A program made the position numbers and the translations under genes. The notes under the pieces were generated by a model that saw only the letters and a list, made by a program, of their open reading frames with translations, searched no databases and was not told the origin of the DNA. A stretch of DNA of 64,000 bases from Anaerocolumna cellulosilytica (GTDB lineage Bacteria; Bacillota; Clostridia; Lachnospirales; Lachnospiraceae), in the NCBI RefSeq assembly GCF_014218335.1, contig NZ_AP023367.1, forward strand, positions 4,025,501 through 4,089,500, written 5' to 3'. This document shows positions 14,173 through 52,838 of the stretch, one piece after another. Each line of letters begins with the position of its first letter. The first letter of the stretch is position 1.

Positions 14173-14210
14173 CTCTCTGCATACTACAAACTAGCTTGCG
14201 GTACTGCACA
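14173..14210 (-). repeat. Diverged copy of dispersed palindromic repeat (copy 3)
   Basis: On the minus strand this segment agrees with the copy at 52800-52838 in about 24 of 38 positions, with two long matching blocks (GCAGTA, CGCAAGCT) and TATGCA. A short GAAAG-N5-CTTTC stem with T-run precedes it, as a similar terminator-like stem precedes copy 2. It lies in the leader of the ABC ATPase gene. Confidence 0.5.
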
Positions 14211-14275
14211 AAAAGAAAGATTTGCTTTCCAGCTTCCAAAGATTCTGCAACTTCCTGTTTTTCCTATACTTAAGT

Positions 14276-14304
14276 ATTCTACCGTTAAATACCATTCTAA
14301 ACAA
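14276..14304 (-). promoter_or_regulatory. Promoter of the ABC-2 transporter operon
   Basis: Minus strand TTGTTT (14299-14304), 17 bases, TAGAAT (14276-14281). This puts the transcript start near 14270 and supports the downstream start codon for the ATPase, leaving a leader of about 180 bases that contains the repeat copy. Confidence 0.55.
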
Positions 14305-14473
14305 CTTAAAAAGTCTTACGATTTTCTTAATGCACTTTTATACTCGTTAATATCCATCTGGTTTACATTCCTAAAATGATGTTCGTAAGTCTCAAAGTGA
14401 AGTACTAAGAACAGATCAATGGGCTTTTAGACACAATATGGCGTAGTATTCCTAGAAAAATCTATAAAAACAC

Positions 14474-14701
14474 TTGCAAAATAGTAAATATACGATAAAA
14501 TAGAAATGAATGTTTACCACTTATAGCCCATAGCCAGGTAAGGTACACAATAGAAAAGCAGGGTGACTGCATTTTAACCTAGCAAATGCATATTTGTACC
14601 TGACACACAGATGGGAGTCAAGGTGAAAGAAAATATATAGAAGAAAGGACGCCACTTATTAATTCTTTAGCCTTTTTTGTGGCAATTAAATGGTGTATTA
14701 A
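14474..14701 (+). promoter_or_regulatory. Promoter and long leader of the ABC-F gene
   Basis: TTGCAA (14474-14479), 16 bases, TAAAAT (14496-14501) would start a leader of about 195 bases. The leader can form GCAG-N5-CTGC (near 14560) and GCCAC...GTGGC (near 14652-14684), the latter enclosing a T-rich stretch just before the start codon. No convincing leader ORF was found. The gap upstream (14305-14473) shows nothing else. Confidence 0.4.
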
Positions 14702-16336
14702 ATGATACAAGCAAGTAATGTAACTTTGAGGCTTGGCAAGAGAGCCTTATTTGAGGATGTAAATATTAAATTTACTGAAGGAAACTGTTATGGTTTAATC
14801 GGTGCAAACGGTGCAGGAAAATCTACGTTCCTAAAGATTTTGTCCGGACAGATAGAGGCAAGTAAAGGAGATATTTTAATAACTCCCGGACAAAGATTAT
14901 CTTTCTTACAACAAGATCACTTTAAATATGACCAGTATGATGTTTTGAATACGGTTATTATGGGGAATCAAAGATTATATGAAATAATGAAAGAAAAAGA
15001 TGCCATCTATGCTAAAGAAGATTTTACAGAAGCAGACGGTATTAAAGCCAGTGAATTAGAAGGTGAATTCGCTTCCTTAAACGGTTGGGAAGCGGAAGCA
15101 GATGCCTCAACTTTATTAAACGGTCTAGGCATAGATACTGGCCTTCATTCCAAGTTAATGAGTGAACTAAGTGGTGGTGAGAAGGTTAAGGTCTTACTTG
15201 CCCAGGCTCTTTTTGGTAATCCTGACATCCTTTTATTGGATGAGCCTACCAACCATTTGGATTTAGAAGCCATCCGTTGGTTAGAAGAATTCTTAATCAA
15301 CTTTGAAAATACAGTAATCGTAGTATCCCATGACCGATACTTCCTCAATAAGGTATGTACTCATACGGCTGACATTGATTACGCTAAAATCCAGCTTTAT
15401 GCCGGTAACTATGACTTTTGGTATGAATCCAGCCAGTTAATGGTTAAGCAAATGAAAGAAGCCAATAAAAAGAAGGAAGAAAAAATTAAAGAGCTTCAGG
15501 AATTTATTCAGCGGTTTAGCGCCAATGCTTCTAAATCAAAGCAGGCCACTTCCCGTAAGAAAGCACTTGAAAAAATTGAACTGGATGACATCCGTCCTTC
15601 CAGCCGTAAATACCCATACATTGATTTTAGACCACACCGCGAAATCGGAAATGAAGTCTTAACCGTAACTAACTTATCAAAAACCATTGATGGTGTTAAA
15701 GTACTTGATAATATCTCTTTTACTATTAACAAAGATGATAAAGTTGCTTTCGTGGGACCTAACACCCAGGCAACAACTGTTTTATTCCGTATCCTTGCAG
15801 GGGATTTAGAACCCGATGAAGGAACTTATAAATGGGGAATCACCACTACTCAGTCTTACTTCCCAAAAGATAACACAAAAGACTTTGATACTGATGATAT
15901 TATTGTTGACTGGCTTATGCCATATTCTCCTGAAAAGGATGTTACTTATGTACGTGGCTTCTTAGGACGTATGCTCTTTGCTGGTGAAGAGGGTGTCAAA
16001 AAAGTTCGCGTTCTTTCCGGTGGTGAAAAGGTTAGAGTTATGTTATCCAAAATGATGATTGTTGGTGCCAATGCATTAATTATGGACGAACCTACAAACC
16101 ATTTGGACATGGAATCCATTACTGCTTTAAACAATGGATTAATAAAATTCCCGGGTGTTATATTATTTACTTCCCAGGATCACCAGTTTATACAAACCAT
16201 TGCAAACCGTATTATGGAACTTACTCCAAACGGCCTGATTGACAAAGTAACTACGTACGACGAATACCTGGACAGCGATGAATTTGCACGTAAAAGACAA
16301 GTAATGCAGATTGACCGTACCGAAGATGAGATGTAA
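14702..16336 (+). CDS. ABC-F protein of YkpA/YbiT type with degenerate second ATP site
   Basis: A 544-residue soluble protein with two ABC ATPase domains joined by a charged linker (about 235-300). Such proteins act on the ribosome. Domain 1 has intact GANGAGKST, LSGGE and LLLDEPTNHLD. In domain 2 the Walker A reads GPNTQATT (residues 352-359), so the P-loop Lys is Thr358, and the switch motif reads FTSQDHQF, with Gln at the usual His; signature (LSGGE) and Walker B (IMDEPTNHLD) are kept. The YkpA sequence as I recall it keeps both the Lys and the His. A weak ribosome binding site precedes ATG 14702. A strong bidirectional terminator follows. Confidence 0.9.
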   Translation: MIQASNVTLRLGKRALFEDVNIKFTEGNCYGLIGANGAGKSTFLKILSGQIEASKGDILITPGQRLSFLQQDHFKYDQYDVLNTVIMGNQRLYEIMKEKDAIYAKEDFTEADGIKASELEGEFASLNGWEAEADASTLLNGLGIDTGLHSKLMSELSGGEKVKVLLAQALFGNPDILLLDEPTNHLDLEAIRWLEEFLINFENTVIVVSHDRYFLNKVCTHTADIDYAKIQLYAGNYDFWYESSQLMVKQMKEANKKKEEKIKELQEFIQRFSANASKSKQATSRKKALEKIELDDIRPSSRKYPYIDFRPHREIGNEVLTVTNLSKTIDGVKVLDNISFTINKDDKVAFVGPNTQATTVLFRILAGDLEPDEGTYKWGITTTQSYFPKDNTKDFDTDDIIVDWLMPYSPEKDVTYVRGFLGRMLFAGEEGVKKVRVLSGGEKVRVMLSKMMIVGANALIMDEPTNHLDMESITALNNGLIKFPGVILFTSQDHQFIQTIANRIMELTPNGLIDKVTTYDEYLDSDEFARKRQVMQIDRTEDEM

Positions 16337-16420
16337 TTATTATACAAAACTTCACAAAGGTTTCTTATGTTGACTTTGCCCTATCTTAGATAAGGACGCC
16401 CGCAGTGAATTAATTTATAG

Positions 16421-16470
16421 TAAAATCCCTCTCTGCTATCCCTATGAGATGCAGAGAGGGATTTTATTAT
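16421..16470. terminator. Bidirectional terminator
   Basis: AAAATCCCTCTCTGC (16422-16436) and its exact complement (16451-16465) form a 15-base-pair stem with U-runs on both strands. It lies between the convergent ABC-F and nucleotidyltransferase genes. Confidence 0.95.
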
Positions 16471-17258
16471 TACTTTATAGAATTTTGAAATAATACTGCA
16501 TGCAAATTATCCTTAATCCACTGCAAAAACTTTAAGTCGAAAACCCCTATTATTTCCTCCGAAAGATTCTCAAGGACAAATTCAAGAATCCTGATTATAT
16601 ATGCATTCGCTATAGTAAACCCCTCTGGAGTAAGATTTTTATACGCCCCTTCAACCCAGTTATACTGTTCCTCTGGAATCAACTCATTCAGCTTTTTTAA
16701 GCCGAGATAAGCATACTCTTTATCATAAATATAACGAAGTAGTATTGCTGCATTTGCCACTGCTTCATCCATAATTCTGGCAGTCCATGCATAATTTTTT
16801 CTTTGATAGGCACTATCGGCCTCCACAAAATAATATAAGGTATTATTAAAACAATTGACAAGCTGTTCTTTACTCAGCCTTTTTGTCTCCACCTTATACT
16901 CTCCAAATAAATTATCCGGATCATAATAAACCTTAATCGGTTCTCCATAGCAGGGAAAATCCTCCTTTGTAACCGTATACAGATCAAAATGCAGTACATC
17001 TGAAAATATGGCTAAGGTCTGTTTCATGCCAAAATCATTCTCTGTAGTATAAACAATCGAATTATAAGCATTAAGATATGAAAGCCTTCTTTCAAGAAAA
17101 GATTCATAATTTTTCTTTGTTACTACCGCATACATGTCCACATCAGAATATGCATCATCATCGCCACGTCCAATGGATCCTTTTAAAAGAATGGCTTCAC
17201 ACAGTCCGTCCTGTATGATCTTACTTCCAACAGCTTCAATCGCTTTATATGTTTTCAT
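16470..17258 (-). CDS. Nucleotidyltransferase-domain protein
   Basis: A 262-residue protein whose N-terminal half carries the DNA polymerase beta-like nucleotidyltransferase motif GSIGRGDDDAYSDVDMY (about residues 23-39), with the paired Asp residues needed for metal binding. The C-terminal half is helical, as in aminoglycoside or streptomycin adenylyltransferase-like proteins. It could inactivate a drug or modify another small molecule; the substrate is not clear. ATG 17258 has GGGA six bases upstream; ATG 17270 is in frame but has none. It stands alone. Confidence 0.8.
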   Translation of the reverse strand: MKTYKAIEAVGSKIIQDGLCEAILLKGSIGRGDDDAYSDVDMYAVVTKKNYESFLERRLSYLNAYNSIVYTTENDFGMKQTLAIFSDVLHFDLYTVTKEDFPCYGEPIKVYYDPDNLFGEYKVETKRLSKEQLVNCFNNTLYYFVEADSAYQRKNYAWTARIMDEAVANAAILLRYIYDKEYAYLGLKKLNELIPEEQYNWVEGAYKNLTPEGFTIANAYIIRILEFVLENLSEEIIGVFDLKFLQWIKDNLHAVLFQNSIK

Positions 17259-17463
17259 CGTTATTCCCATCTGCGTACTTTAATACGCACCTAAATCAAT
17301 ACTTGCTAGTGAGCATCAATCGAACTTATTATTCTTTACAACGTTTATTCTACTAAATTATTCTAGCATATTCAATTACCAATTTACCTGCACTTTGATT
17401 GATTCCCAAAAAATCTGAACTTCAAAATCCCAGCCATCTAAGAATAAATCACTCAGAAAGCAA

Positions 17464-17508
17464 TCAAAAAAAGCTCCATGACTTTTAGAAATAAAAAAGT
17501 CATGGAGC
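17464..17508 (-). terminator. Intrinsic terminator of the phospholipase-like gene
   Basis: On the minus strand GCTCCATGACTTTT pairs with its complement (plus positions 17473-17486 and 17495-17508), followed by seven T. It lies 13 bases past the stop codon of the downstream-reading gene. Confidence 0.9.
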
Positions 17509-17520
17509 AGGTAAGCTTTT

Positions 17521-18117
17521 TTAAGCAGCTTCCATTTCTCCAATACCAAGCTGCAGATAATTAAACTCAAAAATCTTTAAGATAGCATCGACTACCTTAT
17601 GGCATAATTCTACAATGTACATACAGTCGTTCTTTATCTTACCAACCACTTTTAAATACTCTTCATGCATTTGTCTTATGAATTGGAGAATCTCTTCTAC
17701 CGTTTCCATGGTATGGCTCTTGTCTCTAGCCTTAATTGCATCTTCACTCTTGACATACTCTTTTAACGCAAACTTTAAATCACGCTCATAAAGACAGTGC
17801 TCCTTCATAGTTCCGGTAAAGGATCTATTATGGGGATAGGTAAAATAGTCTGCAATGTAGTGTGTTATTACGCCCAAATGCCTGGTATAATAGCGGGTTA
17901 ACCCTCTTTCTGCTTCGTAATCATCCGTTATCTTCTTAATTTCATTCTCTAGGATTTCAAAGGTTTCATCTATAGTGTGTCTCCTAGTAATAAAAGAGGG
18001 GACACAATCAGGGAGTATACTTCCTATATAAAAAGACTTTTTATGGTTAAATAAGCCTTCCACATTCATGCTTTTTATTAAATATTTCGCTAATGAGATA
18101 TGTGATTTTTTTCTCAT
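17521..18117 (-). CDS. Zinc-dependent phospholipase C family protein
   Basis: A 198-residue all-helical protein of the Zn_dep_PLPC type (PF00882). Candidate zinc ligands are visible: an early His (KKSHISLA), IGSILPDCVPSF with Asp, RRHTIDE, and HLGVITHYIADYFTYPHN, which contains the HxxxxxHxxxDxxxxPH pattern of the family. There is no signal peptide, so unlike the Clostridium alpha-toxins it should stay inside the cell. ATG 18117 is preceded by GGGGGA; an upstream in-frame ATG at 18129 lies before that site. It stands alone. Confidence 0.85.
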   Translation of the reverse strand: MRKKSHISLAKYLIKSMNVEGLFNHKKSFYIGSILPDCVPSFITRRHTIDETFEILENEIKKITDDYEAERGLTRYYTRHLGVITHYIADYFTYPHNRSFTGTMKEHCLYERDLKFALKEYVKSEDAIKARDKSHTMETVEEILQFIRQMHEEYLKVVGKIKNDCMYIVELCHKVVDAILKIFEFNYLQLGIGEMEAA

Positions 18118-18341
18118 AAAGTCCCCCATTCATTCGGTCATATAATTCAGTTAACTTACCTTGAGTCATCTATCAGCCTTGCAAATCGACATATCATGAC
18201 GCTGATAATAATATTTATTTTACTACTAAAATGGTTATTACACAATAGTAAAATATCTGTAAAATAAGAATTAATAAATTCTAATCAATAAGATGATTTA
18301 CGAAACAATTGACCACTTGTATTAAAATATAACTATGAATA

Positions 18342-18664
18342 TTGACATTACCACAATATTCATGTAGAATTGGAGTAATTGTACAAAAATGCAATTGATA
18401 ACACATAAACCAATGGCACTTATAACAACTGCCTCCGACATACACTATACCTGAGGCTTAGCACAGGGGCAGGCACATAGATACAATATTCTTACATGTA
18501 TATACTATGTGTAAATCCTCTTATTTAACATAAAAACCGCTCAATATAGGTTAAAGAAAATAACACAACATAACATTTTTCGATTTCTCACCATGATATA
18601 TTATGCTAAGAGCCTATATACCGTTATACTTGCCAACAACTTAAGAATTAGGAGATGATAATTT
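18342..18664 (+). promoter_or_regulatory. Promoter and structured 290-base leader of the CNNM gene
   Basis: TTGACA (18342-18347), 17 bases, TAGAAT (18365-18370). The leader contains CTGCCTC (18429-18435), GAGGC (18453-18457) and GGCAG (18468-18472), which allow two mutually exclusive stems, followed by a strong hairpin CACATAG...CTATGTG (18474-18511). A metal-sensing riboswitch would fit a CNNM gene, but I could not match a known class. The rest of the gap from 18118 shows nothing. Confidence 0.45.
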
Positions 18665-19954
18665 TTGGACCCGAGTGAAGTCACGCAACTGGTTATATTA
18701 GGTATTCTATTGATACTATCAGCTTTTTTTTCATCCGCTGAAACCTCTCTTACTACGGTAAACAAGTTAAGAATCCGTAGCTTAGCCGAAGATAATGTAA
18801 AGGAGGGACTGATAGTGAATAAGCTGATTGAAAATCCGTCAAAGATGTTAAGTTCAATATTAATCGGTAATAATATTGTCAATTTGACTGCCTCATCAAT
18901 TGCCACTGCTCTCGCCATTAATCATTTTAACAGTGTCGGTGTTGGTATTGTAACTGGAATACTAACAGTTCTGATATTAATTTTTGGTGAAATTATGCCA
19001 AAAACTGTAGCAACTATTTATTCAGAAAAATTATCTTTAAAGTATGGACGAGTTATTTATTTATTAACAAAGCTAATGACACCAATTATTTTTTTAATTA
19101 ATAAGATATCCTTGGTTTTTTTAATGCTTTTACACATCAATCCACATGCAAAACCCTCTGTTATTACAGAGGATGAATTACGAACTATTGTTGATGTCAG
19201 TCATGAGGAGGGCGTCATTGAAAGCGAAGAACGGCAAATGATTACAAATGTTGTGGATTTTGGTGATTCTCTCGCAAAGGATGTTATGATTCCCAGAGTC
19301 GATATGGCTTTTGCTGAAGTTTCTTTAACCTACGAAGAACTTGTAAATATATTTTCCATCGACAAATATACAAGGCTTCCGGTATTCAGTGAAAACCGGG
19401 ATAATATAATTGGAATTGTAAATTTAAAGGACATCTTTTTTTACCAGGGAGACAAGAAAGATTTTTGCATTAAAGATATTATGAGAGAACCCTATTTTAC
19501 CTACGAATATAAGAAAACGTCAGAGCTCTTAAAAGAAATGAGACGGGATTCCATTCCTCTTACCATTGTATTAGATGAATACGGTGCAACTGCCGGATTA
19601 ATAACATTAGAAGACCTTTTAGAAGAGATTGTCGGTGAGATTAGAGACGAATATGATGACGACGAAGAAGATGCAATTTGTAAAATTGGTGATAACGAAT
19701 ATCTTGCAGATGGTAATACGAAATTAGATGAAATTAACGAAATTATTGGTTTGAACCTGGAATCCGATGACTATGATTCTATCGCCGGACACTTAATCTA
19801 TCTATTGGATCATCTTCCCGAAGCCGGGGAAAGTGTCACAGATAACAACGTTGTGTATACTGTCCATGCAGTTGAAAAGAATCGTATCGATAAGGTACAT
19901 CTAGTTGTGCTCTATCAAAATCCCCAGGATGGAGACAAAATTCTAGTAAACTAA
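18665..19954 (+). CDS. CNNM/CorC family transporter (hemolysin family)
   Basis: A 429-residue membrane protein. A CNNM (DUF21) domain with four hydrophobic segments (about 1-190, including FFSSAETSLTTVN and ILIFGEIMPKT) is followed by two CBS domains (about 205-330; MIPRVDM and VVLDEYGATAGLITLEDLLEEIVG) and a CorC_HlyC domain (about 345-425). Family members export or regulate Mg2+ and related divalent cations. The start is TTG at 18665, with AGGAG ten bases upstream; no better ATG exists. A structured leader precedes and a terminator follows, so it is monocistronic. Confidence 0.93.
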   Translation: MDPSEVTQLVILGILLILSAFFSSAETSLTTVNKLRIRSLAEDNVKEGLIVNKLIENPSKMLSSILIGNNIVNLTASSIATALAINHFNSVGVGIVTGILTVLILIFGEIMPKTVATIYSEKLSLKYGRVIYLLTKLMTPIIFLINKISLVFLMLLHINPHAKPSVITEDELRTIVDVSHEEGVIESEERQMITNVVDFGDSLAKDVMIPRVDMAFAEVSLTYEELVNIFSIDKYTRLPVFSENRDNIIGIVNLKDIFFYQGDKKDFCIKDIMREPYFTYEYKKTSELLKEMRRDSIPLTIVLDEYGATAGLITLEDLLEEIVGEIRDEYDDDEEDAICKIGDNEYLADGNTKLDEINEIIGLNLESDDYDSIAGHLIYLLDHLPEAGESVTDNNVVYTVHAVEKNRIDKVHLVVLYQNPQDGDKILVN

Positions 19955-19985
19955 AAGTTTCTATAAATAACGATTAGTACAAGAA

Positions 19986-20030
19986 CTGCTGCCCCTAACA
20001 TTACGTTAGTCAGGCAGCGGTTTCTTTTTA
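19986..20030 (+). terminator. Intrinsic terminator after the CNNM gene
   Basis: CTGCTGCC (19986-19993) pairs with GGCAGCGG (20013-20020), with an inner TAAC/GTTA step, followed by TTTCTTTTT. Confidence 0.85.
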
Positions 20031-20159
20031 AGTCTAAACTTTGAGAGGTTATTTGCATAAATAAAGACCAAAAAGAAACCATAAAAATATGATAAGGTCA
20101 TAGAATGGATATAAAAGAACACTATAAATAGCAGACTAAAGTTACTATTTACCTTTCCT

Positions 20160-21101
20160 CTACTCCTCCTTCCAATTTATTTCTTCACTTTTATTAAATA
20201 TCATAGTAACAGCTTTACGTAATTCTCTCATGAAACCATAATTGGGGTTCTTCCGTTTGCAATTGTAATTGCTTGACAGGAACTCAACAACGGTTCCTTT
20301 TAAGACTGCCTCCTGATACTCTATATTGTATGGTATGACTGCTAAATCCGATTTATTTATAGAATAGGTTTTGGATATTTTTTGAATGTTTAAATTAGAT
20401 GTTTTATGATACCTGCTAAATAAGAAGACACTTTTATCTAGGATTGAAGAATAATTGTCAAAGAAATATTTTATCATGGATGAATTTTGAACCAAATTTA
20501 CAACAACCAAATCAACTTCTTCAAGAATATACTTAGAACTAAGATTATTTTCATTAGATGTATCAATATATATAATATCAGCAAATTTTTCTGATGCCTT
20601 TAAGATTTTCCCTATATTATCATTTAACTGGTAATCAAATATGTAGCGATTTAGATAATGATTAACAGGGATATAGTATAGATAATTATCCAGTATTTCC
20701 ATGGATGCTTCCTTGATGATTACCGATGTATCTTTTATATTCTCATAGTAATTCTTTTTATCACCTGAATCTTTCAGTTCCCAAAGAGGATTTCTCTCTC
20801 TGCCTCCAACCGTTATTGGTATATTATCCATAGGATTACCGGATAAATCGTAAGACTCTCCTGCGGAAAATTCGTTTAAAATATAATCCATTCCTGCGTT
20901 ACCGCACTTAGTATTACCATTGTCCTTAAACTGATGGGTCTGCTGGTATCTTAATATATTTCCCAGCCTGTTTTTCTGATAGTGATTTTCAATCAGTACA
21001 GACTTACAAGAATACTCTATCGTTGCAGCTATGCTGATACTTGCCAAATTACTGCTTACACCAATGCCCCCCTTAGCGCTGCTCCAAAAAGCAATTTTCA
21101 T
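20160..21101 (-). CDS. Orphan ParA/MinD-like protein with altered P-loop
   Basis: A 313-residue protein of the SIMIBI class. The N-terminus reads KIAFWSSAKGGIGVSSN: the ParA/MinD signature Lys (Lys10) is present, but the P-loop Lys of KGGxGK is Val15. A switch-like segment IIYIDTSNEN (about 175) and LVVVNLVQNSSMIKYF follow, as in CpaE/TadZ-type proteins, which also have atypical Walker A motifs. No type IV pilus, Tad or plasmid partition gene is nearby. A role in positioning or in regulating a secretion system elsewhere is a guess. AAGGGG precedes ATG 21101. Confidence 0.7.
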   Translation of the reverse strand: MKIAFWSSAKGGIGVSSNLASISIAATIEYSCKSVLIENHYQKNRLGNILRYQQTHQFKDNGNTKCGNAGMDYILNEFSAGESYDLSGNPMDNIPITVGGRERNPLWELKDSGDKKNYYENIKDTSVIIKEASMEILDNYLYYIPVNHYLNRYIFDYQLNDNIGKILKASEKFADIIYIDTSNENNLSSKYILEEVDLVVVNLVQNSSMIKYFFDNYSSILDKSVFLFSRYHKTSNLNIQKISKTYSINKSDLAVIPYNIEYQEAVLKGTVVEFLSSNYNCKRKNPNYGFMRELRKAVTMIFNKSEEINWKEE

Positions 21102-31800: not shown

Positions 31801-31830
31801 CATATAAAATTCATAGTAAAACACTAGGAA

Positions 31831-32108
31831 TGAGAGAGTAAGCATTATGTAATCTTACAGAGAGCTTTTGGTGGTGAAAAAAAAGCAGATAAATTGTGCT
31901 GAAGATGGCTCAGGAGTGGCGCCCCAAACTGCTATGCATCAATACTGTATAGTACTTAGGCAGCGACAGGATTGCCTGTTATAGCAAGCGGGTATACGCA
32001 TTAAAAAATGCCGTACTCTCTGAGGTCTCGTATCGAAAGGTACAGATAAATTGAAGTGGTAACGCGGGCTTATACTCGTCTTCTGTTAAGGAAGACGAGT
32101 TTTTTATT
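31831..32108 (+). ncRNA. T-box riboswitch, probably tRNA-Met responsive
   Basis: Stem I closes with AGAGAGTA (31833-31840) and TACTCTCT (32014-32021). The T-box sequence AAGTGGTAACGCGGG is at 32054-32068, and the terminator ACTCGTCTTC...GAAGACGAGT with a T-run is at 32074-32106. The T-box carries UGGU, which pairs with a tRNA 3' end having discriminator A. The specifier region reads AAAAAATGCCG (32004-32013), containing both ATG (Met) and TGC (Cys); since tRNA-Cys has discriminator U and tRNA-Met has A, Met is favoured. Stem I is long (about 190 bases). It controls the cystathionine-type gene that follows. Confidence 0.9.
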
Positions 32109-45853: not shown

Positions 45854-45878
45854 TATAATCAAAATTGTTCTAGAACAA
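45854..45878 (+). promoter_or_regulatory. -10 box with overlapping 14-base palindrome
   Basis: TATAAT at 45854-45859, followed five bases later by the perfect palindrome TTGTTCTAGAACAA (45865-45878) at the expected transcript start. The -35 region is not clear, which would suit an activated promoter. A short hairpin (CCGAT-ACAA-ATCGG) lies before the peptide gene. Confidence 0.5.
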
Positions 45879-45932
45879 GTAACAGCAACCCGATACAAAT
45901 CGGAGAAGTCATAATTTGAAGGAGGAAAAAGC

Positions 45933-46010
45933 ATGTGTTTCTATAACTTTGACTGCTCACAACTTTTAGAATTAATCCGCAAATGTTTAGGTGCTACTTG
46001 TAATAAATAA
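45933..46010 (+). CDS. 25-residue cysteine-containing peptide
   Basis: A short ORF with an optimal ribosome binding site (AAGGAGG, seven bases before ATG 45933). The peptide starts MCFYNFDCSQ, contains four Cys (residues 2, 8, 18, 23), and ends GATCNK. It has no signal peptide. A palindromic operator and -10 box stand upstream and a strong terminator downstream, so it is a complete small transcription unit. It could be a regulatory or leader peptide, a metal-binding peptide, or the readable part of a small RNA. Confidence 0.5.
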   Translation: MCFYNFDCSQLLELIRKCLGATCNK

Positions 46011-46075
46011 CTTGCCTATGATGCCCGTAAATTCCGGGTGTAATAAACGTAACGTCCTTTTATCAAAAGCAAAAT

Positions 46076-46170
46076 AATACCTGCCGTTAATCTAGGAAAC
46101 TCTTCCATCTTCTGGCTGTTACAATAAGCAGCCGGATGAAAGGCATTGATTAACGGCAGGTATTTTATTA
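46076..46170. terminator. Long-stem bidirectional terminator
   Basis: AATACCTGCCGTTAATC (46076-46092) and its exact complement (46148-46164) are separated by a loop containing a second stem (GGCTG...CAGCC). It serves the 25-residue peptide unit and the convergent RsiV-like gene. Confidence 0.85.
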
Positions 46171-46848
46171 TTTACAGCCTGGCATAGCGGCAGCCCCTTC
46201 ACCAAAGGGTATTAAAAAGGTTCGGATGCCGCTTACATAGGGAGCAATTTCATATAATTGAAAAAAGATAACTACTCCTTCCGGTACCAAATAAAAATTT
46301 CGCTCATTTATATTCTCCTTTACCAATACCGCATAGTCTTCAAAGTAATATTCATTTCCTTTTTTTATATCATTTTCAATCTGCTGATTGACGAATTCTA
46401 TAATATCTGACAGGTAATTCTTATTGTCGGGAAAAAAGTCACTAAGAGTCATTCTCTGCCCCTTTTGCAGATTCCAGGTATCTCCGCTGCGGGTGGTCAT
46501 TCCATGAGCACCACCAGTGAATTCATATCGGTCAAAGTACAGACTTAGCATACAATTTTGATTATAGGTTAATTGGTATTCAACTAAAACCTCATAGAGA
46601 TGGAACGGAAAATTATTGGCAGAGGCATACTCATAATCATCCACAGACATCTGATAAAGCTTCATCACATGGTATTTCTGATAGAGAGTAGCCTCTGCCT
46701 TGTAATATATGTTCAGTTTATTAATAAAAGGCTTAAACTTATCGGATGCAAATTGGGGGTAATAAATGGTGTAAGTAAGTGTTTTCTGATTCTTATAATA
46801 TAAATCGTTATGAATGCTGTCCTTTTTTTCAAGAATTCGGTAAACCAA
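46168..46848 (-). CDS. DUF4163/DUF3298 (RsiV-like) protein
   Basis: A 226-residue protein with the DUF4163 part (about 20-110) and DUF3298 part (about 120-215) as in the extracellular portion of RsiV and PdaC; FTGGAHGMTTRSGDTWNLQKG is the family hallmark. There is no signal peptide or membrane anchor in this frame, which is odd for the family. The start is TTG 46848 with AGGGAG nine bases upstream. No sigma factor gene is adjacent. Confidence 0.8.
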   Translation of the reverse strand: MVYRILEKKDSIHNDLYYKNQKTLTYTIYYPQFASDKFKPFINKLNIYYKAEATLYQKYHVMKLYQMSVDDYEYASANNFPFHLYEVLVEYQLTYNQNCMLSLYFDRYEFTGGAHGMTTRSGDTWNLQKGQRMTLSDFFPDNKNYLSDIIEFVNQQIENDIKKGNEYYFEDYAVLVKENINERNFYLVPEGVVIFFQLYEIAPYVSGIRTFLIPFGEGAAAMPGCK

Positions 46849-46921
46849 ACTATATGTCTCCCTAAAAATATCCTTAGGTTAGCATATGCTCTCTGACTGC
46901 ATATTGTTCATAAATGAAAGT

Positions 46922-48187
46922 CTATCTCCAGATTAACCAGATAAGAATATATCCGCAGATTACTGCTGATAAAGTAAATGGTATACTCATTTTCATAAAC
47001 TGACCTGCACTAACCTCATACCCTTCTTTCCTTAAGATACCAATACCTGTTATATTGGCAGAAGCACCTATTGGTGTAATATTCCCACCCAAAGTAGAAC
47101 CTATTAACAAGCCAAAATATAATATATAAGGATCAATTTGAAGAATGCCTGCTATCTGTGCTGTAACCGGAAGCATTGTGGCTACATATGGAATATTATC
47201 AATAAAGGCAGAAAATAATACCGAAGCCCACACAATCAAAGTAAAGATGACAAAAACATTATCACTAGCCTTAACAAACAGCTTGCTGATGTCTGATACA
47301 ATACCTGCTTCTGTAATTCCTCCGATTACAACAAATAAACCGGTCAGCAACAGAATGGTCTGAAAATCAATCTCTTTTATAGCGTCGGTTAATGTATTAA
47401 TATTTCTGGTAATAAAAAGCTTTCTCGTTATTCCAATTGCAAATAACACCATACATATAAGTCCATTTGTTATTGACGGTTTATTCTCAATAAAAGACGC
47501 AATAATTAGTAAAGCAACAATGCTGCATAAAAGTACAGTTGGAAAAAAGTCTGTGACTTTTGTTCTCTCCATGGCTTTTACCGGCTCTTTGTCCTTACGA
47601 AAAATAAATAAAAGTACTAAAGTTGAAACGAAAGCACCTATTTCAACTATCCAAAAGATACCCAGTCTTCCCTTAAAAAAGAAAAAGTCCATAAAATTCA
47701 TATCTGCATATCCGCCCAAAAGAATTGACGTAGTATCTCCCACCAGAGTTGCCGCTCCTTGCAGATTGGATGCTATGGATATTGCGATTACGCTGGAAAC
47801 CGGTGAAATATTGAGCTTTTTGGCAATGGTTAAAGCTACCGGTGCAACCATTAATACAGTGGCAACATTATCTACGAATGCTGAGATAATACCTGCAAAT
47901 AAGGCCAGTGAAACGATAGCCCATTTTACATTAGGGGTTTTTTCAATAATAAAATCAGCTAACAAGGAAGGCATCTTTGATTCGATAAATAAGGACACCA
48001 CCCCCATAGTACCTGCTATCATCATTATGACATTCCAATCAACTGTTACAAAAATCTTTTCAACTGGCAAAATGCCAAGAGCCACAAAAATAGCAGCAGA
48101 TGCTAACGCAATATAGGCTCTCAATTTGGGTAAGCTTAATAACAATACATATGTTAATGCAAATAGTATTAATGCCGTAGTTTTCAT
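46922..48187 (-). CDS. ArsB/NhaD superfamily ion permease
   Basis: A 421-residue membrane transporter of the ion transporter superfamily. The two inverted halves carry AFVDNVATVLMVAPVAL and AFIDNIPYVATMLPV, with Asp-Asn pairs seen in NhaD-type Na+/H+ antiporters, plus SNLQGAATLVGDTTS and GSTLGGNITPIGASANI. Arsenite, Na+ or dicarboxylate transport are all possible; the NhaD-like pairs favour cation antiport. ATG 48187 follows GGAGG; the longer frame to 48277 has no site. It is monocistronic. Confidence 0.85.
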   Translation of the reverse strand: MKTTALILFALTYVLLLSLPKLRAYIALASAAIFVALGILPVEKIFVTVDWNVIMMIAGTMGVVSLFIESKMPSLLADFIIEKTPNVKWAIVSLALFAGIISAFVDNVATVLMVAPVALTIAKKLNISPVSSVIAISIASNLQGAATLVGDTTSILLGGYADMNFMDFFFFKGRLGIFWIVEIGAFVSTLVLLFIFRKDKEPVKAMERTKVTDFFPTVLLCSIVALLIIASFIENKPSITNGLICMVLFAIGITRKLFITRNINTLTDAIKEIDFQTILLLTGLFVVIGGITEAGIVSDISKLFVKASDNVFVIFTLIVWASVLFSAFIDNIPYVATMLPVTAQIAGILQIDPYILYFGLLIGSTLGGNITPIGASANITGIGILRKEGYEVSAGQFMKMSIPFTLSAVICGYILIWLIWR

Positions 48188-48330
48188 TTCTTTCTCCTCC
48201 TTTGTACATACATTTCTTTTGTATACCTGCCATCGCACTGTTTCTGAATTACATTCTGAGATATTATAGCATAGCAAATTACTTAATACAACGGAAAGTA
48301 TAAAGAATTGTTATACAAGGTTGCGCAAAT

Positions 48331-48741
48331 TTATTTCTCCTTATTTGAAATTAAGCGGTTAATATACGCTGCCCGTTCTTTTTCCAGCATATTGAAATAA
48401 CTATGAATAAACGTATAAATAGCCACATACGCAGTTGTCATTATTATAAGATTTTTATAATGGAAAGAAAACCAGTGAAACACAAACGCTGTTGCCATAA
48501 AAAGTGCATACCCTAAAATTAATTCTGTTATAAAATATGTCTTGTAGCTTCTAAAATCAATATAGGAAAGCAAATAATCCATACCGTTAATTACTATTAA
48601 AAAACCAAACAATTGTAATATAGATAAAAAATATCCCTCATTGCTATTGTGAGTCACTATGTTATAAATCGCACTAAACAAGACCGAAAAAGTAAAGCCT
48701 ATGCAAATTCCCGGCAGATATGATTTCCATACTTTTCTCAT
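48331..48741 (-). CDS. DUF3021 membrane protein
   Basis: A 136-residue protein with four hydrophobic segments and a basic cytosolic tail (NMLEKERAAYINRLISNKEK), matching DUF3021. In Firmicutes these proteins are regularly encoded after a LytTR regulator and are thought to modulate it. Here the LytTR gene is upstream by 159 bases, with a repeat copy between. The ribosome binding site is weak (GGGT, before ATG 48741). Confidence 0.8.
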   Translation of the reverse strand: MRKVWKSYLPGICIGFTFSVLFSAIYNIVTHNSNEGYFLSILQLFGFLIVINGMDYLLSYIDFRSYKTYFITELILGYALFMATAFVFHWFSFHYKNLIIMTTAYVAIYTFIHSYFNMLEKERAAYINRLISNKEK

Positions 48742-48744
48742 AAA

Positions 48745-48834
48745 TTATACCCATTGCATATCGCAGGCAATCCGCGATATTGCCACATTATAAATCATGG
48801 CATCCTTTCCATTTAATTTTAAATCAATCTCCAT
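48745..48834 (-). CDS. Possible 29-residue upstream peptide
   Basis: A short ORF between the LytTR and DUF3021 genes starting at ATG 48834 with GAGG ten bases upstream. Its last part is read from the dispersed repeat and ends ACDMQWV, the same tail as one frame of the copy at 52800. It may be a real leader peptide or a by-product of the repeat. Confidence 0.25.
   Translation of the reverse strand: MEIDLKLNGKDAMIYNVAISRIACDMQWV
48749..48786 (-). repeat. Dispersed palindromic repeat (copy 1)
   Basis: On the minus strand it begins GTGGCAATATCGC and ends CCTGCGATATGCAATGGGT, forming a TATCGC/GCGATA stem. It lies seven bases before the DUF3021 start codon. Copy 2 (52800-52838) is nearly identical outside the loop and lies six bases before another start codon. 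Confidence 0.75.
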
Positions 48835-48900
48835 TATCCCGTATCCTCTTAGATATACTATTTTATTTAACCTAAGGATACTCTATCCTTTTTTAAACTA

Positions 48901-49338
48901 TCACCTTAACAGCTTCTCTTTTAATGTATCAATATAATTTCTGGATATAATGAGCCTTTCTCCATTTTTTAGAGCAGCTTCCATACGATGATTTGCATAT
49001 GGTTTAACACTTTTAATACAGGCAGTATTTACAAGACAACTTTTACTAATTCTTACAAACGAGGTGTTATATAGCTTTCCCTCCAAAGTTGTCAGACTGT
49101 CCTTGCTTTCGTAAATCTGACTTGTACTGTATAAAAAGGTCTTACCATCAACGGATTCAATATAAAATAAGGTTTCTACCGACAGATGAAATAATTCGCT
49201 TCCCTGATATCCCTGTAAGGAAAAGGTATATTGCCTGATATATTCAATCAGATGTTTCAATCGTTTATCAACCATGCCGCAGTTAATAACAATCTCATCC
49301 TCTATTTCGTTCATGCCTTCGTAAATGGTTAATTTCAT
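48901..49338 (-). CDS. LytTR-domain transcriptional regulator
   Basis: A 145-residue protein: a short N-terminal segment and a LytTR DNA-binding domain (about 45-145) with LFHLSVETLFYIESVDGKTF, FVRISKSCLVNTACIKSVKPY and LKNGERLIISRNYI. There is no receiver domain, so it is the stand-alone type that works with DUF3021 proteins. GGGAGG precedes ATG 49338. Such regulators usually bind direct repeats near their own or an adjacent transporter gene. Confidence 0.9.
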   Translation of the reverse strand: MKLTIYEGMNEIEDEIVINCGMVDKRLKHLIEYIRQYTFSLQGYQGSELFHLSVETLFYIESVDGKTFLYSTSQIYESKDSLTTLEGKLYNTSFVRISKSCLVNTACIKSVKPYANHRMEAALKNGERLIISRNYIDTLKEKLLR

Positions 49339-49526
49339 ATCCTGCCTCCCAGAGAACTAATTGTAAAAAGTATGGTGCTATTATATAAAAGGTACGTAAT
49401 TAATACAACCTCTAACGCTCAGAATGCCAAAAACTGAACTTGAAATACCCTGTTGTCAAATAGCCTTTCTAACTTAAAATGGCTATTGCTGCATAAATTG
49501 CTTCTCATAGTAGAGATACACATAGA

Positions 49527-49565
49527 AAACAGACTGGACATATCTCATAGATACCTGTCCAGTCT
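49527..49565 (-). terminator. Intrinsic terminator after the 41-residue peptide gene
   Basis: AGACTGGACA (49531-49540) and TGTCCAGTCT (49556-49565) form a ten-base-pair stem, followed by TTTTC on the minus strand and a T-rich run on the plus strand. Confidence 0.8.
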
Positions 49566-49636
49566 GCTATTTTATTCCGCTCATTTAACTCTAAGTAATC
49601 GTAACAACCATCTACCTGTGTAAGGGAGTTAGGGTG

Positions 49637-49762
49637 TTATGATATATCGTAGGTAAGTTTCTGATATCTTTTATAAAATTTACAACAGACTGTAGCTATA
49701 ATTGTACTGACAACAGCGAAAACACCGGTAATAATTGCAGCGGTAGATAAAATTTTTTTCAT
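49637..49762 (-). CDS. 41-residue membrane peptide with long leader
   Basis: A short ORF with a good ribosome binding site (AGAGG, five bases before ATG 49762). The peptide has a short basic start (MKKIL), a hydrophobic helix (about residues 5-27) containing CC at 26-27, and a polar tail (KFYKRYQKLTYDIS). A promoter lies 255 bases upstream and a terminator 72 bases downstream, so it forms its own transcription unit. The leader contains a CCGC-TTAG-GCGG hairpin just before the start. The family is not recognised. Confidence 0.55.
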   Translation of the reverse strand: MKKILSTAAIITGVFAVVSTIIATVCCKFYKRYQKLTYDIS

Positions 49763-50016
49763 AGTTTCCTCTCAATCCGCCGCCTAAGCGGCAATCAGGT
49801 GAACGTCATCAAGTTATCATGCAGTAGCTTTCATTGCATGCTACATCTTCCTTGCAACTGTGACTCTGCCTAAAATTAAGGTCTGACTCCATATACCGAT
49901 ACCACTTTACTATATATAATATATATATAAAGACATCTGGTATGTATAGAGTTAACAAAAGGGATAGTTCATATTCCGTTTCAGTAATGTAGTTAAATTA
50001 AAGTTTGTACACTTTT
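49763..50016 (-). other. Structured leader of the 41-residue peptide gene
   Basis: About 250 bases of predicted 5' leader on the minus strand, with GTAGC...GCTAC, GCATGCA...TGCATG and a GCCGC...GCGGC hairpin close to the start codon. No known riboswitch class was matched. An alternating AT tract (49911-49932) lies in the middle. Confidence 0.4.
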
Positions 50017-50045
50017 ATTATATTCCTGCTTTTAAAAATATACAA
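50017..50045 (-). promoter_or_regulatory. Promoter of the 41-residue peptide unit
   Basis: Minus strand TTGTAT (50040-50045), 17 bases, TATAAT (50017-50022). The 190 bases between it and the next terminator show no gene. Confidence 0.55.
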
Positions 50046-50232
50046 TATTCAAATTCAGCAAATCTTTAAATTTGACAAAATAAAACAAACCATGCCATTG
50101 CCTTTTTGATAATTGTTCACAATAATTTCAATAATCATTCAAACTCTATACACATGTGAACGTTATACTATATTCATAGATAAGGCAATAGAAAACTTAC
50201 AACCTAGCTAATATAAAACTTTTTTTCATAAA

Positions 50233-50256
50233 GGCCAGCAGGATTTCCTGCTGGCC
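50233..50256 (-). terminator. Hairpin terminator after the AgcS gene
   Basis: GGCCAGCAGGA and TCCTGCTGGCC form an 11-base-pair perfect stem with a two-base loop, followed by CTTT on the minus strand. It lies about 70 bases past the symporter stop codon. Confidence 0.75.
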
Positions 50257-50327
50257 ACTCCTCTTTTATATCGTCCTACTATTTATAAGGTGACCTATTG
50301 TTACCTCTTACTACTCTTTTGCTCTTC

Positions 50328-51719
50328 TTATTTTTTCGTTTGAAGAAAGGTAGAAAAGGACGTATCTTTTGGTCGAATTCGTTTGGCGTCTTTAAAGAAA
50401 TCACTGGTTAATTTAACAATTGTTGTACTGAGCGCAAACAATGCAATCAAATTAGGAATTGCCATTAATCCATTGAACAAGTCTGCTAATTCCCAAACTA
50501 CATCAACCTCTGCTATACATCCTACAAAAACCAATAGAACAAATACAATTTGATAGAGTCTGATAACTTTCACTCCTGCAATGTACTCCAGAGCCTTCTC
50601 TGCATAATAATACCATGCTATTATGGTAGCAAAGGCAAATAATACAATACCAATAGAAACTACATATTCCCCTCCAGGGATTGTATTTCTAAAAGCGGAT
50701 AAAGATATATGTGTACCATCCATACTGGAATCACTCCATAAACCACTTGTAATAATTACCAGAGCAGTAACAGTACACATTATTATTGTATCAAAAAAGA
50801 CTTCAAAAGCACCCCAACATCCCTGTCTTGCCGGATGGTCCGTATTAGCACTTGCATGGGCTATGGGTGCACTTCCAAGACCTGCTTCATTCGTAAAAAC
50901 ACCTCTTGCGATACCAATTCTCGCAGCGTACAGCATTGTTGAACCTGCAAATCCACCTACTGCTGCGCTTCCCTTAAATGCATCTGCAAATATCATCTGG
51001 ATGGCTGCCGGTATCTTTCCTGCATTTATAATTAAAACAATTACTGCTGCTATAATGTACATGGCTGCCATAAAAGGTACTAATGTTTCTGCTACCGCTG
51101 CAATTCTTTTAATTCCCCCGATAATAACCAGTCCCACCAATGCAGCCAGAATAATTCCTGTCACATAAGTTGATAAATGAAAAGATAATTTTAAACCACT
51201 AGAGACCGCATTGGCCTGTACCATGTTACCCACACCAAATGAAGCAAATACAGCAAACACACAAAATGCAACCGAAGTTTTTTTCCATCCAAGTCCTTTG
51301 CTGATATAGTACATAGGGCCTCCCACAAAATCCCCCTTTGCGTTCTTTTCACGATAGGCTACAGCTAAAGTGGTCTCGCAAAATTTTGTAACCATACCCA
51401 ATACAGCGCAAATCCACATCCAAAAGATAGCACCTGGCCCTCCGATACTGATTGCTATAGCAATTCCAACAATATTACCGGTTCCAACCGTTGCTGCAAG
51501 AGCCGTACATACTGCCTGAAATGGAGTAATGGTACCTTCTACATCATTTACTTGTTTTTTAAAAATAGTTTTTAATGTATTTGCCATTACCGTTCCAAAA
51601 CGGGTAAAGATAACTCCTTTAATACGTATGACCAAAAATACCCCAGTGCCCAACATAAGGATTAGCATTGGAATCCCCCATATAATATTGGTATTTAACC
51701 AGACAATCCAATCAAGCAT
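50328..51719 (-). CDS. Alanine/glycine:cation symporter (AgcS family)
   Basis: A 463-residue sodium:amino acid symporter (PF01235). Family features: TALAATVGTGNIVGIAIAISIGGPGAIFWMW, GDFVGGPMYYISKGLGW, and ARIGIARGVFTNEAGLGSAPIAHA. It imports Ala or Gly with Na+ or H+. ATG 51719 (MLDWIVWL) is preceded by GGGAGGAGG; the frame opens 24 codons earlier but that part spans the promoter. It is monocistronic. Confidence 0.94.
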   Translation of the reverse strand: MLDWIVWLNTNIIWGIPMLILMLGTGVFLVIRIKGVIFTRFGTVMANTLKTIFKKQVNDVEGTITPFQAVCTALAATVGTGNIVGIAIAISIGGPGAIFWMWICAVLGMVTKFCETTLAVAYREKNAKGDFVGGPMYYISKGLGWKKTSVAFCVFAVFASFGVGNMVQANAVSSGLKLSFHLSTYVTGIILAALVGLVIIGGIKRIAAVAETLVPFMAAMYIIAAVIVLIINAGKIPAAIQMIFADAFKGSAAVGGFAGSTMLYAARIGIARGVFTNEAGLGSAPIAHASANTDHPARQGCWGAFEVFFDTIIMCTVTALVIITSGLWSDSSMDGTHISLSAFRNTIPGGEYVVSIGIVLFAFATIIAWYYYAEKALEYIAGVKVIRLYQIVFVLLVFVGCIAEVDVVWELADLFNGLMAIPNLIALFALSTTIVKLTSDFFKDAKRIRPKDTSFSTFLQTKK

Positions 51720-51744
51720 AGCATTTCCTCCTCCCAAAATGTAT

Positions 51745-51774
51745 ATTATATCTATACCTTCTAATTTTAACCAA
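51745..51774 (-). promoter_or_regulatory. Promoter of the AgcS gene
   Basis: Minus strand TTGGTT (51769-51774), 18 bases, TATAAT (51745-51750), leaving a leader of about 20 bases. Confidence 0.55.
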
Positions 51775-51881
51775 TATCTATTATATTTCAATCTTGATAT
51801 TTTTTCAATTATTTTGTATAAATACTCAAAATTTTATAATTTACTTCGATACAGTATTACTAAATAAGAAGAAGTCATGCT

Positions 51882-52793
51882 TTAATCATTCTCTATAATT
51901 CTCTCGATTCGTTTTATTGCTTCTCTTGCTTCGGGAATTGGCCAGAGTGGATAGATATGACCCATATATTTCTTTTTAATGTAGTCAATTGCAATATTCT
52001 GCTGCTTCGCTTTTTTATATAGCCGATAAGAATCTACATATAGGATGTCATGTGTACCGGTAAAAACTGTCATTCTCCCAAGACCCCTAATATCACCGTA
52101 CAAGGGACTTACCATTGGATCTTTTTTGGATTTATGTCCTGCCCAGTATTCACCGCAGATACGCAGTCCGTTAGAAGTTAGCATGCTGTCCCTCGTTTCG
52201 ATATCCTGCACATAAGGAGATGACATAGTTACATCCAACCAAGGTGATATCATAATAAGTTCAGCCGGCTGCTTTACATTCCTGTTCTTTATCTGCTGTG
52301 CCATACCAAGTACTAAGCCACCCCCTGACGAATCACCCATGAAGATAATTTTTTCTTCCTTCACTGTTTTTGCAAATAATACATATAATCTCATTAACGC
52401 CTTATAGGCTACTTTTGCATTATGAAAGGGAATCTTCGGATATACAGGCACCCATATCTGGACAGCCGTATCCTTGGCTATTTTATTTAAAAATCTCCAA
52501 TGAAGGATTCGAGGCTGATGAAGAAATGCTCCTCCATGAAAATACATGATTTTACTCTTATATAGTTTGTTACTATTTTTTTTAGGATTTAAAATAATGT
52601 ATTCTACTCCATGATATGTTTCTTTTTTAATGTCAACTGAAAAACTTTTATAGGTAAGCTTATATGGTTCTTCCCCTCTCTTATAGATGGCCTGTACTGA
52701 CTTTTTATAAGTTAGTTTATTGCTGGTCATGCGTTTTCCCGGTATATGTGATATAATCTTTTCAACAGCAATACTGCTGATGCTTCTTCTCAT
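51882..52793 (-). CDS. Alpha/beta hydrolase (HSL-type esterase)
   Basis: About 303 residues of the hormone-sensitive-lipase group. Oxyanion-hole motif YFHGGAFLHQP, nucleophile Ser in MGDSSGGGL, acid Asp in GTHDILYVDS and His in MGHIYPLWP, so the triad is complete. It hydrolyses short-chain esters; the natural substrate is unknown. ATG 52793 (MRRSISS) is preferred: the frame extends to 52877, but those codons run through the dispersed repeat and a terminator-like stem. Confidence 0.85.
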   Translation of the reverse strand: MRRSISSIAVEKIISHIPGKRMTSNKLTYKKSVQAIYKRGEEPYKLTYKSFSVDIKKETYHGVEYIILNPKKNSNKLYKSKIMYFHGGAFLHQPRILHWRFLNKIAKDTAVQIWVPVYPKIPFHNAKVAYKALMRLYVLFAKTVKEEKIIFMGDSSGGGLVLGMAQQIKNRNVKQPAELIMISPWLDVTMSSPYVQDIETRDSMLTSNGLRICGEYWAGHKSKKDPMVSPLYGDIRGLGRMTVFTGTHDILYVDSYRLYKKAKQQNIAIDYIKKKYMGHIYPLWPIPEAREAIKRIERIIEND

Positions 52794-52799
52794 GTTTAC

Positions 52800-52838
52800 A
52801 CCCATTGCATATCGCAGGTAAGCTTGCGATACTGCCAC
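52800..52838 (-). repeat. Dispersed palindromic repeat (copy 2)
   Basis: On the minus strand GTGGCAGTATCGCAAGC leads to CCTGCGATATGCAATGGGT, with a TATCGC/GCGATA stem, six bases before the esterase start codon. A terminator-like GTGAAAG...CTTTCAC stem with seven T (52843-52896) stands directly upstream. Confidence 0.75.

What the first reader, a model, noticed from the sequence alone, without database searches (positions are those of the whole stretch)
14173..52838. Dispersed palindromic repeat, two copies placed directly before start codons
Copies at 48749-48786 and 52800-52838, and a diverged one at 14173-14210, are all oriented the same way relative to a downstream minus-strand gene. Two end six or seven bases before ATG and share CCTGCGATATGCAATGGGT. 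The stem TATCGC/GCGATA would sit next to the translation start. Copies 2 and 3 are preceded by a terminator-like stem. This suggests an interspersed element that carries, or invades, translation initiation regions and might regulate unrelated genes together. The genes are a DUF3021 protein, an esterase and an ABC ATPase.
Basis: seen in the sequence. Interest (0 to 1): 0.7.

Follow-up and report, generated by a model that had tools for sequence, protein, structure and literature searches.

The report
Structured RNA insert before start codons
A folded RNA element of about 106 bases has been copied many times around the genomes of some anaerobic bacteria, mostly into the few bases between a gene's ribosome-binding sequence and its start codon, where it seems to supply a replacement ribosome-binding site.

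Summary
The window's genome (5.43 Mb; genus matching Anaerocolumna, Lachnospiraceae) has 149 covariance-model hits at E<=10, with only 150 candidates scored; even sampling suggests about 200 copies. The unit is a ~106-nt structured RNA: a pseudoknot (arm A/A' crossing GCCAC/GTGGC), a second, sequence-variable hairpin, and a weak Shine-Dalgarno(SD)-like tail. Of 75 distinct copies, 64 end at the start codon of an ORF of 60 aa or more (random positions 431 of 4000). Orthologous genes in congeners show empty sites: the unit lies between native SD and ATG. The native SD weakens as own-genome copies diverge, while an internal SD (AGAAAGGA) stays strong. Helices A and 2 covary. Related units occur in 14 other genera of the family; 21 of 23 inspected loci precede a start codon. 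No Rfam match; no mobilising enzyme found. Best reading: a non-autonomous dispersed element that inserts into ribosome-binding sites and brings its own folded, split one.

The parts
52792..52905 (-). Full-length copy before the ATG at 52793-52791 of an alpha/beta-hydrolase (hormone-sensitive-lipase-like, below NCBIfam cut-offs)
   Evidence: R1 96.4 bits, E 7.9e-19; gene
52890..52899 (-). Pseudoknot arm A (AAAGTGAAAG) of the copy at 52792-52905
   Evidence: sequence; helix supported by covariation over 75 distinct copies
52870..52875 (-). Internal Shine-Dalgarno-like SD1 (GAAAGG)
   Evidence: SD1 anti-SD duplex <= -6 kcal/mol in 47 of 48 own-genome copies
52864..52868 (-). Arm B (GCCAC)
   Evidence: nearly invariant, pairs with B'
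52847..52856 (-). Arm A' (CTTTCACTTT), pairs with A across B
52834..52838 (-). Arm B' (GTGGC)
52809..52832 (-). Hairpin 2 (GTATCGCAAG/CTGCGATAT)
   Evidence: 8 of 9 pairs of this helix change on both sides somewhere in the alignment
52799..52806 (-). Tail AATGGGTG, weak SD next to the ATG
   Evidence: tail anti-SD duplex <= -6 kcal/mol in 28 of 48 own-genome copies, median -6.2
48741..48825 (-).
   Evidence: R1 56.1 bits
14614..14702 (+).
   Evidence: R1 48.6 bits; ORF; best NCBIfam match ABC-F family ATPase, 667.8 bits, below its cut-off of 762
14164..14266 (-).
   Evidence: R1 19.5 bits, E 0.029

Best explanation
It is a small, non-autonomous dispersed element of about 106 bp that inserts, in one orientation, into the short interval between a gene's native Shine-Dalgarno sequence and its start codon. 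Once there it acts at the RNA level as the gene's new ribosome-binding region. A pseudoknot (A/A' crossing B/B') and a second hairpin are looped out, so that a strong internal SD (AGAAAGGA) is brought towards the start codon, helped by a weak SD-like tail. The native SD upstream becomes redundant and decays. Each unit ends in an SD-like tail plus spacer, so the end of one unit is a target for the next; this would explain the tandem arrays. Shown: dispersal, SD-to-ATG placement, empty sites, covariation of helices A and 2, conserved SD1, native SD weaker in more diverged copies. Inferred: movement by insertion rather than another duplication route, use of SD1 by the ribosome through the fold, and self-targeting.
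For: Dispersal: 149 hits at E<=10, 150 candidates scored; 16 hits at E<0.01 in 400 kb of evenly spaced own-genome stretches, one of them a related family-2 unit. Among 30 copies compared, pairs up to 90% identical have unrelated flanks. Tandem units of 105-108 bp in G010. Placement: 64 of 75 distinct copies at an ORF start against 431 of 4000 random positions; 19 of 20 fetched copies in G012/G008 before a long ORF; 21 of 23 inspected loci of the family-wide search. Empty sites: G006 ...GGCAGAATGAGAGGTAAACATG against G008 ...GGCAGAATGAGAGGTA[unit]ATG; three more genes. SD just 5' of arm A: relatives' median -7.7 kcal/mol (22 of 37 at <= -6) against -2.3 (5 of 37) in control windows. In the own genome it is strong in 14 of 48, SD1 in 47 of 48, and native SD weakens with falling model rank (Spearman 0.60, n 48; SD1 24 of 24 and 23 of 24 in the two halves). 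RNA level: 90.7% of cells paired against 34.5-52.4% for slid partners, 23 of 28 pairs with changes on both sides; G-U against A-C cells 66/22 (A) and 70/10 (hairpin 2), shuffles 76/40 and 106/52. Length from B' to ATG minus hairpin 2 is 13-17 nt in 57 of 68 copies. In orthologous copies 23 of 27 changed hairpin-2 cells keep pairing; stems change at 0.079 against 0.142 elsewhere.
Against: No mobilising enzyme found: the two Y1 transposase types and the one RT type whose ends could be delimited have unrelated ends; other enzymes were not searched. No terminal inverted repeats by eye and no clear target-site duplication (at most about 3 bp). No expression data. The unpaired length from B' to ATG (about 15 nt) is long for a classical SD spacer, so use of SD1 through the fold is unproven; the tail alone may serve, though it is strong in only 28 of 48 and 9 of 20 copies. 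B/B' is nearly invariant, and its G-U to A-C ratio (24/11) is as shuffled. On the first 18-copy alignment the number of pairs with changes on both sides was not above shuffles (119 of 500 as high). In orthologous copies A/A' is kept in only 14 of 28 changed cells. A'/SD1 pairing as a switch showed no covariation.
Confidence: 0.68

Rival explanations
1. A cis-regulatory RNA (riboswitch- or protein-binding leader) used by a very large regulon; the copies are kept because they regulate translation, and spread is a by-product of duplication.
For: RNA covariation and hairpin-2 pairing kept within orthologous loci; location at start codons; housekeeping genes included; four of eight comparable insertions shared by three species.
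Against: No common theme among the genes seen; many sites are not conserved within the genus (EngB: 1 filled, 12 readable orthologs without the unit; 5 of 5 G008 genes with at least one congener lacking it); tandem copies; no Rfam match.
Confidence: 0.2
2. A selfish MITE- or REP-like DNA repeat with random insertion; copies survive mainly at RBSs, and hairpins are needed only as single-stranded DNA for transposition.
For: Dispersal, tandem arrays, similar copies with unrelated flanks.
Against: Neutral intergenic sites should hold most survivors, yet 64 of 75 copies sit at ORF starts; hairpin 2 pairing is kept in situ; native SD decays while SD1 is kept; no TIR by eye and no matching Y1 or RT element.
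Confidence: 0.09
3. The unit is removed from the mRNA like a miniature intron, restoring the native SD-to-ATG spacing.
For: Exact placement between native SD and ATG, also for arrays of up to four units.
Against: The native SD weakens with divergence of the copy, which splicing would not allow; too small for group I or II catalytic cores (recalled); no Rfam match over the element.
Confidence: 0.03

Closest known systems
Pneumococcal BOX, RUP and SPRITE repeats (PMC3049150; abstract and passages seen)
   Same: Small, dispersed, structured repeats largely confined to a few related species; likely non-autonomous; BOX is modular and expressed as RNA.
   Different: The paper reports TIRs and TSDs for BOX and RUP, and over-representation of all three between convergent genes; here copies lie between SD and ATG, with no TIR seen and an internal SD.
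REP/BIME and PATE repeats mobilised by IS200/IS605-type Y1 transposases (recalled)
   Same: Subterminal hairpins, strict orientation relative to target, little or no TSD.
   Different: Y1 elements of this genome have other ends and lie after terminator-like hairpins; target here is the SD-ATG spacer; signs of RNA-level selection.
T4 gene 25/38-type RBS in which a hairpin between SD and AUG shortens the spacing (recalled)
   Same: Proposed working principle: looping out a structure to bring the SD to the AUG.
   Different: Those are single phage genes; here it is a dispersed pseudoknot element before many genes.
Mobile bypassing elements (byps) of yeast mitochondria (recalled; the one search returned 0 papers)
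   Same: Mobile structured insert tolerated at the level of translation.
   Different: Byps lie inside coding sequence and are hopped over during elongation; here the insert is before the start codon.

Membership tests
MITE | Terminal inverted repeats | tested here: not met
   by eye: unit ends GGTTGAAAG... and ...GGGTATAA (tandem units) are not inverted repeats
MITE | Target-site duplication | tested here: inconclusive
   empty/filled pairs allow at most about 3 bp
MITE | Autonomous transposon with the same ends in the genome | tested here: inconclusive
   only PF01797 and PF00078 searched, own genome only; ends compared for 2 Y1 types and 1 of 3 RT types, they differ; other transposases not tested
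IS200/IS605-derived repeats (REP, PATE) | Y1 transposase element with the same ends | tested here: not met
   4 Y1 copies of 2 types in the own genome, other ends; relatives not tested
Known structured RNA or riboswitch (Rfam 15) | Match to a family model over the element | tested here: not met
   window at gathering threshold, and 17 of 30 loci then held at E<=5: no match over the element
BOX/RUP/SPRITE | Over-represented between convergent genes | tested here: not met
   64 of 75 copies lie at ORF starts, so before a gene; feature as stated in PMC3049150
Group I or II intron, IStron | Catalytic RNA core | tested here: not met
   no Rfam match over the element; length about 106 nt
Dispersed, non-autonomous bacterial repeat (general kind) | Many copies at unrelated loci with empty sites in relatives | tested here: met

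The most novel reading that the evidence does not exclude
A new class of mobile element defined by its target: it homes to translation-initiation regions (the spacer between SD and AUG), and each insertion replaces the gene's ribosome-binding site with a portable, pseudoknotted split RBS. The insertion step may itself read the SD sequence, as DNA or as mRNA on the ribosome, and could use an undescribed enzyme or an RNA-level route. Some Lachnospiraceae lineages would thereby have had the translation start of a couple of hundred genes, housekeeping genes included, rewired.
Probability: 0.35. Interest if true: 0.92.

Novelty: new variant of a known kind. Interest (0 to 1): 0.78.

Why it matters
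Bacterial repeats are usually thought to survive by avoiding genes. This one sits at one of the most sensitive points of an mRNA, before housekeeping genes, and appears to take over initiation. It offers an estimated 200 natural experiments per genome on what a ribosome tolerates between SD and AUG, a possible portable RBS module, and a case where target choice, RNA structure and translation are tied together. It also affects annotation: ORF callers can extend genes into the element, as at window 52877.

Tried and rejected
Rejected: (1) terminator or DNA operator reading: pairing is kept by changes on both sides and G-U cells exceed A-C cells in A and hairpin 2. (2) Encoded N-terminal extension: only 8 of 68 copies are open in frame over 108 nt upstream of the start. 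(3) Bistable switch with A' covering SD1: no covariation beyond shuffles. (4) Known RNA family: none. (5) Mobilisation by the resident Y1 transposases or the paired RT element: ends differ. (6) Spread by phages or plasmids: no blastn match for one copy in either collection; two pattern scans of viral contigs gave 0 and 1 stretches. (7) Literature: 8 full-text searches (five returned 0 papers, one search listed 20 of 84) listed no paper whose title or abstract start names this element; only PMC3049150 was opened, abstract and passages only.

Limits: one search scored 150 candidates; searches scored at most 60 and 9 per genome with stricter filters, so copy numbers are lower bounds. The 75 copies are the hits at E<=1e-5 in sequence then held, partly chosen for being hit-rich, not a random draw. 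Random positions count internal in-frame start codons, so that control is lenient. Searches used 48 of 75 own-genome copies (27 dropped: arm A not recognised); the model includes a few flank positions, so rank and native SD are not fully independent. One search used 37 of 43 listed copies (6 dropped for no arm match); in at least six (L071, L079, L244, L287, L300, L307) the flank is the tail of a preceding unit rather than a native SD. In one search one row (L084, same site as L264) was left out of the groups. Two of ten G012 genes (L239, L240) gave no aligned ortholog, and some G009 alignments (L263, L269) were not usable. Gene conversion between copies could mimic in-situ conservation.
Full report
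WHAT WAS CHECKED. The 18-mer CTGCGATATGCAATGGGT (up to 3 mismatches) has 44 matches in the 5.43-Mb genome against 2 for the reversed control. Alignment of 18 copies showed a pseudoknot: arm A (GGTTGAAAG...) pairs with A' (...CTTTCAACC) across GCCAC, which itself pairs with GTGGC downstream of A'; then a second hairpin (GTATCGCAG/CTGCGATAT), then CAATGGGTGTAAAT and ATG. A covariance model, R1, with A/A' and hairpin 2 gave 149 matches at E<=10 in the own genome, with 150 of 4283 candidates scored. In 20 evenly spaced 20-kb stretches (400 kb) there were 16 hits at E<0.01, which extrapolates to roughly 200 copies per genome; one of the 16 (L192) belongs to the related family 2.

ORGANISM. 

PLACEMENT. 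Of 75 distinct own-genome copies (hits at E<=1e-5 in the sequence given), 64 end within 8 nt of the start of an ORF of at least 60 aa, 36 of them at the modal offset; the same rule is met by 431 of 4000 random positions. The 11 others include copies at starts that the rule missed (L058 and L211:1001, where an earlier GTG was chosen), short ORFs (55 aa at L037, 53 aa at L214), a LarC-like start 9 nt away (L213), and some with no gene start. In G012 and G008, 19 of 20 fetched copies precede a long ORF; the other (L236) meets a 15-aa frame. Downstream genes named by NCBIfam above cut-off are EngB/YsxC, RdgB, QueA, PurC, GltX, AroQ and GlyS; the window's esterase-like and ABC-F-like proteins match below cut-off and the third window protein has no match.

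INSERTION. In relatives a canonical SD often lies just 5' of arm A, for example AAGGAGGA, GAGAGGTAA and GGAGTACAAA. Orthologs without the unit show what was interrupted. For an spmB-like gene, G006 reads ...GGCAGAATGAGAGGTAAACATGAAATTT and G008 reads ...GGCAGAATGAGAGGTA[unit]ATGAAATTT, the unit's 3' end reading ...GCAGTGGTGTAAAC. Three G012 genes have clean empty sites in G011; for two of them further congeners also lack the unit. Of ten G012 genes queried, eight gave a usable ortholog; four of the eight show an empty or remnant site, and four are filled in all of G012, G014 and G011. All five queried G008 genes have at least one congener without the unit, and two of the five are filled in G006 as well; at L244 the upstream context differs, so that one is weak. 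EngB carries the unit in the own genome only; 12 other orthologs were readable and lack it (one of 14 loci could not be read, and one of 15 genomes had no match), and two of the 12 (L097, L099) have an RBS resembling the unit's SD1 part, so a decayed remnant there is possible. RdgB: among nine named contigs, most of them labelled Anaerocolumna, L114 and L116 carry variant units and L109-L113, L115 and L158 do not. G010 holds tandem units joined as ...GGGTATAA|GGTTGAAAG... with an SD-like sequence before the first in L089 and L093. Among 30 copies compared, pairs up to 90% identical have unrelated flanks. Any target-site duplication is at most about 3 bp.

RNA LEVEL. On 75 distinct copies, 90.7% of cells pair against 34.5-52.4% with slid partners; 23 of 28 pairs show changes on both sides, among them 12 of 12 of A/A' and 8 of 9 of hairpin 2. 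B/B' (3 of 7, few cells) is nearly invariant and says less. This alignment was fitted to a model holding A/A' and hairpin 2 but not B/B'. On the first, unfitted 18-copy alignment the percentage paired, the cells with double changes and the covariation score exceeded all 500 shuffles, but the number of pairs with double changes and of pair types did not. G-U cells outnumber A-C cells 66 to 22 in A/A', 70 to 10 in hairpin 2 and 24 to 11 in B/B'; shuffles expect 76 to 40, 106 to 52 and 27 to 11. Hairpin 2 differs in sequence between copies (ATAATACAT/ATGTATTAT, ATATCCTAAG/CTTAGGATAT) or is absent. The length from B' to the start minus hairpin 2 is 13-17 nt in 57 of 68 copies, including two without hairpin 2. 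Between orthologous copies, changed hairpin-2 cells keep pairing in 23 of 27 cases (one by a double change), A/A' cells in 14 of 28; stem positions change at 0.079 against 0.142 for others. Two results go against richer models: A'/SD1 pairing shows no covariation, and the element is seldom open in frame (8 of 68).

WHICH SD IS USED. In G012/G008, SD1 is strong in 19 of 20, the tail in 9 of 20, the native flank in 14 of 20 (control 4 of 20). Ordinary genes: 160 of 219 (median -9.3; control 35 of 219). A larger set of relatives gives 22 of 37 against 5 of 37 for the control window. Within the own genome the flank SD weakens as model rank falls (Spearman 0.60, p 5.5e-6, n 48; top half 9 of 24 strong, bottom half 5 of 24), while SD1 stays strong (24 of 24 and 23 of 24). 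The simplest reading is that the native SD loses its role after insertion and the unit's own SDs serve. Model rank stands in for age, which was not measured.

RELATIVES. Among 60 relatives plus the own genome, all 15 genomes of the genus and one other (G032) have matches; G003 and G004 have only 3 and 2, the other 13 have 29 to 60 with at most 60 candidates scored. In the family-wide search 17 of 397 genomes match at E<=1e-6, 14 of them outside the genus in 14 genera. Of 23 loci inspected (one of them from G009 in the genus), 21 precede an ATG of an ORF of at least 122 aa (rplR, dnaA, pheT and dapB recognised by eye, not searched) and two are followed by what looks like another unit. In five of these genera a short form lacks SD1 and the B arm; its tail is a strong SD in some copies (GGAGGTG, -14.2) and weaker in others (median of nine -6.9, range -3.9 to -14.2).

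WHAT REMAINS OPEN. No enzyme was found: the own genome has four Y1-transposase and four RT matches; the two Y1 types and the one RT type present in paired copies, whose ends could be seen, have other ends, and R1 gives no match better than E 0.12 in the eight loci. No match to one copy in phages or plasmids; one viral contig carries a family-2 plus family-1 array before a gene. Eight full-text searches of the held library listed no paper on it; absence there is not proof. The pneumococcal BOX/RUP/SPRITE paper (abstract and passages) describes the nearest kind of repeat found, with a different placement.

VERDICT. A real, abundant, RNA-structured dispersed element that lies between SD and start codon. 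Dispersal, placement, empty sites and covariation are shown; insertion mechanism and use of the fold by the ribosome are inferred.

Noticed in passing
L192:13470, L204:3321, L221:8, L227:5451, L207:14550: A related 'family 2' repeat (GTGTGAAAT-loop-ATTTCACACCCTGATTT + hairpin-2-like + CAATGGGAGC), partly in tandem and, in the copies seen in this genome, not at start codons.
   Followed up: partly
L016, L211:15483, L008, L007: Hybrid arrays: the element followed by GGTTGAATaaag...ATTCAACCCCTTGATTTGTACGCGAC...GTCGTAGATGGGAAC; in L016 and L211 a long frame follows (ketopantoate-reductase-like by eye in L016).
   Followed up: no
5' flanks of L067, L076, L245, L248: Several copies are preceded by another hairpin module of the type GCCGC..GCGGCATCATG.
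   Followed up: no
   Followed up: no
L097, L099 (engB upstream): Two congeners without the unit have an RBS AGGAAAGGAYACCACAAAAATG that resembles the unit's SD1-B part: decayed remnant or pre-existing site.
   Followed up: no
L333:200-520: A contig of viral contigs carries a family-2 plus family-1 array between an SD-like sequence and the ATG of an open frame.
   Followed up: partly
L279-L282, L284-L285: Two types of Y1-transposase element and an RT-bearing (group II intron-like) element, each in two copies, sit right after terminator-like hairpins (by eye).
   Followed up: no
window 31817-32086: T-box leader, plus strand.
   Followed up: no
window 52877-52793: The longest ORF of the esterase-like gene starts inside the element (ATG at 52877), a likely source of wrong gene starts in annotation.
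   Followed up: partly
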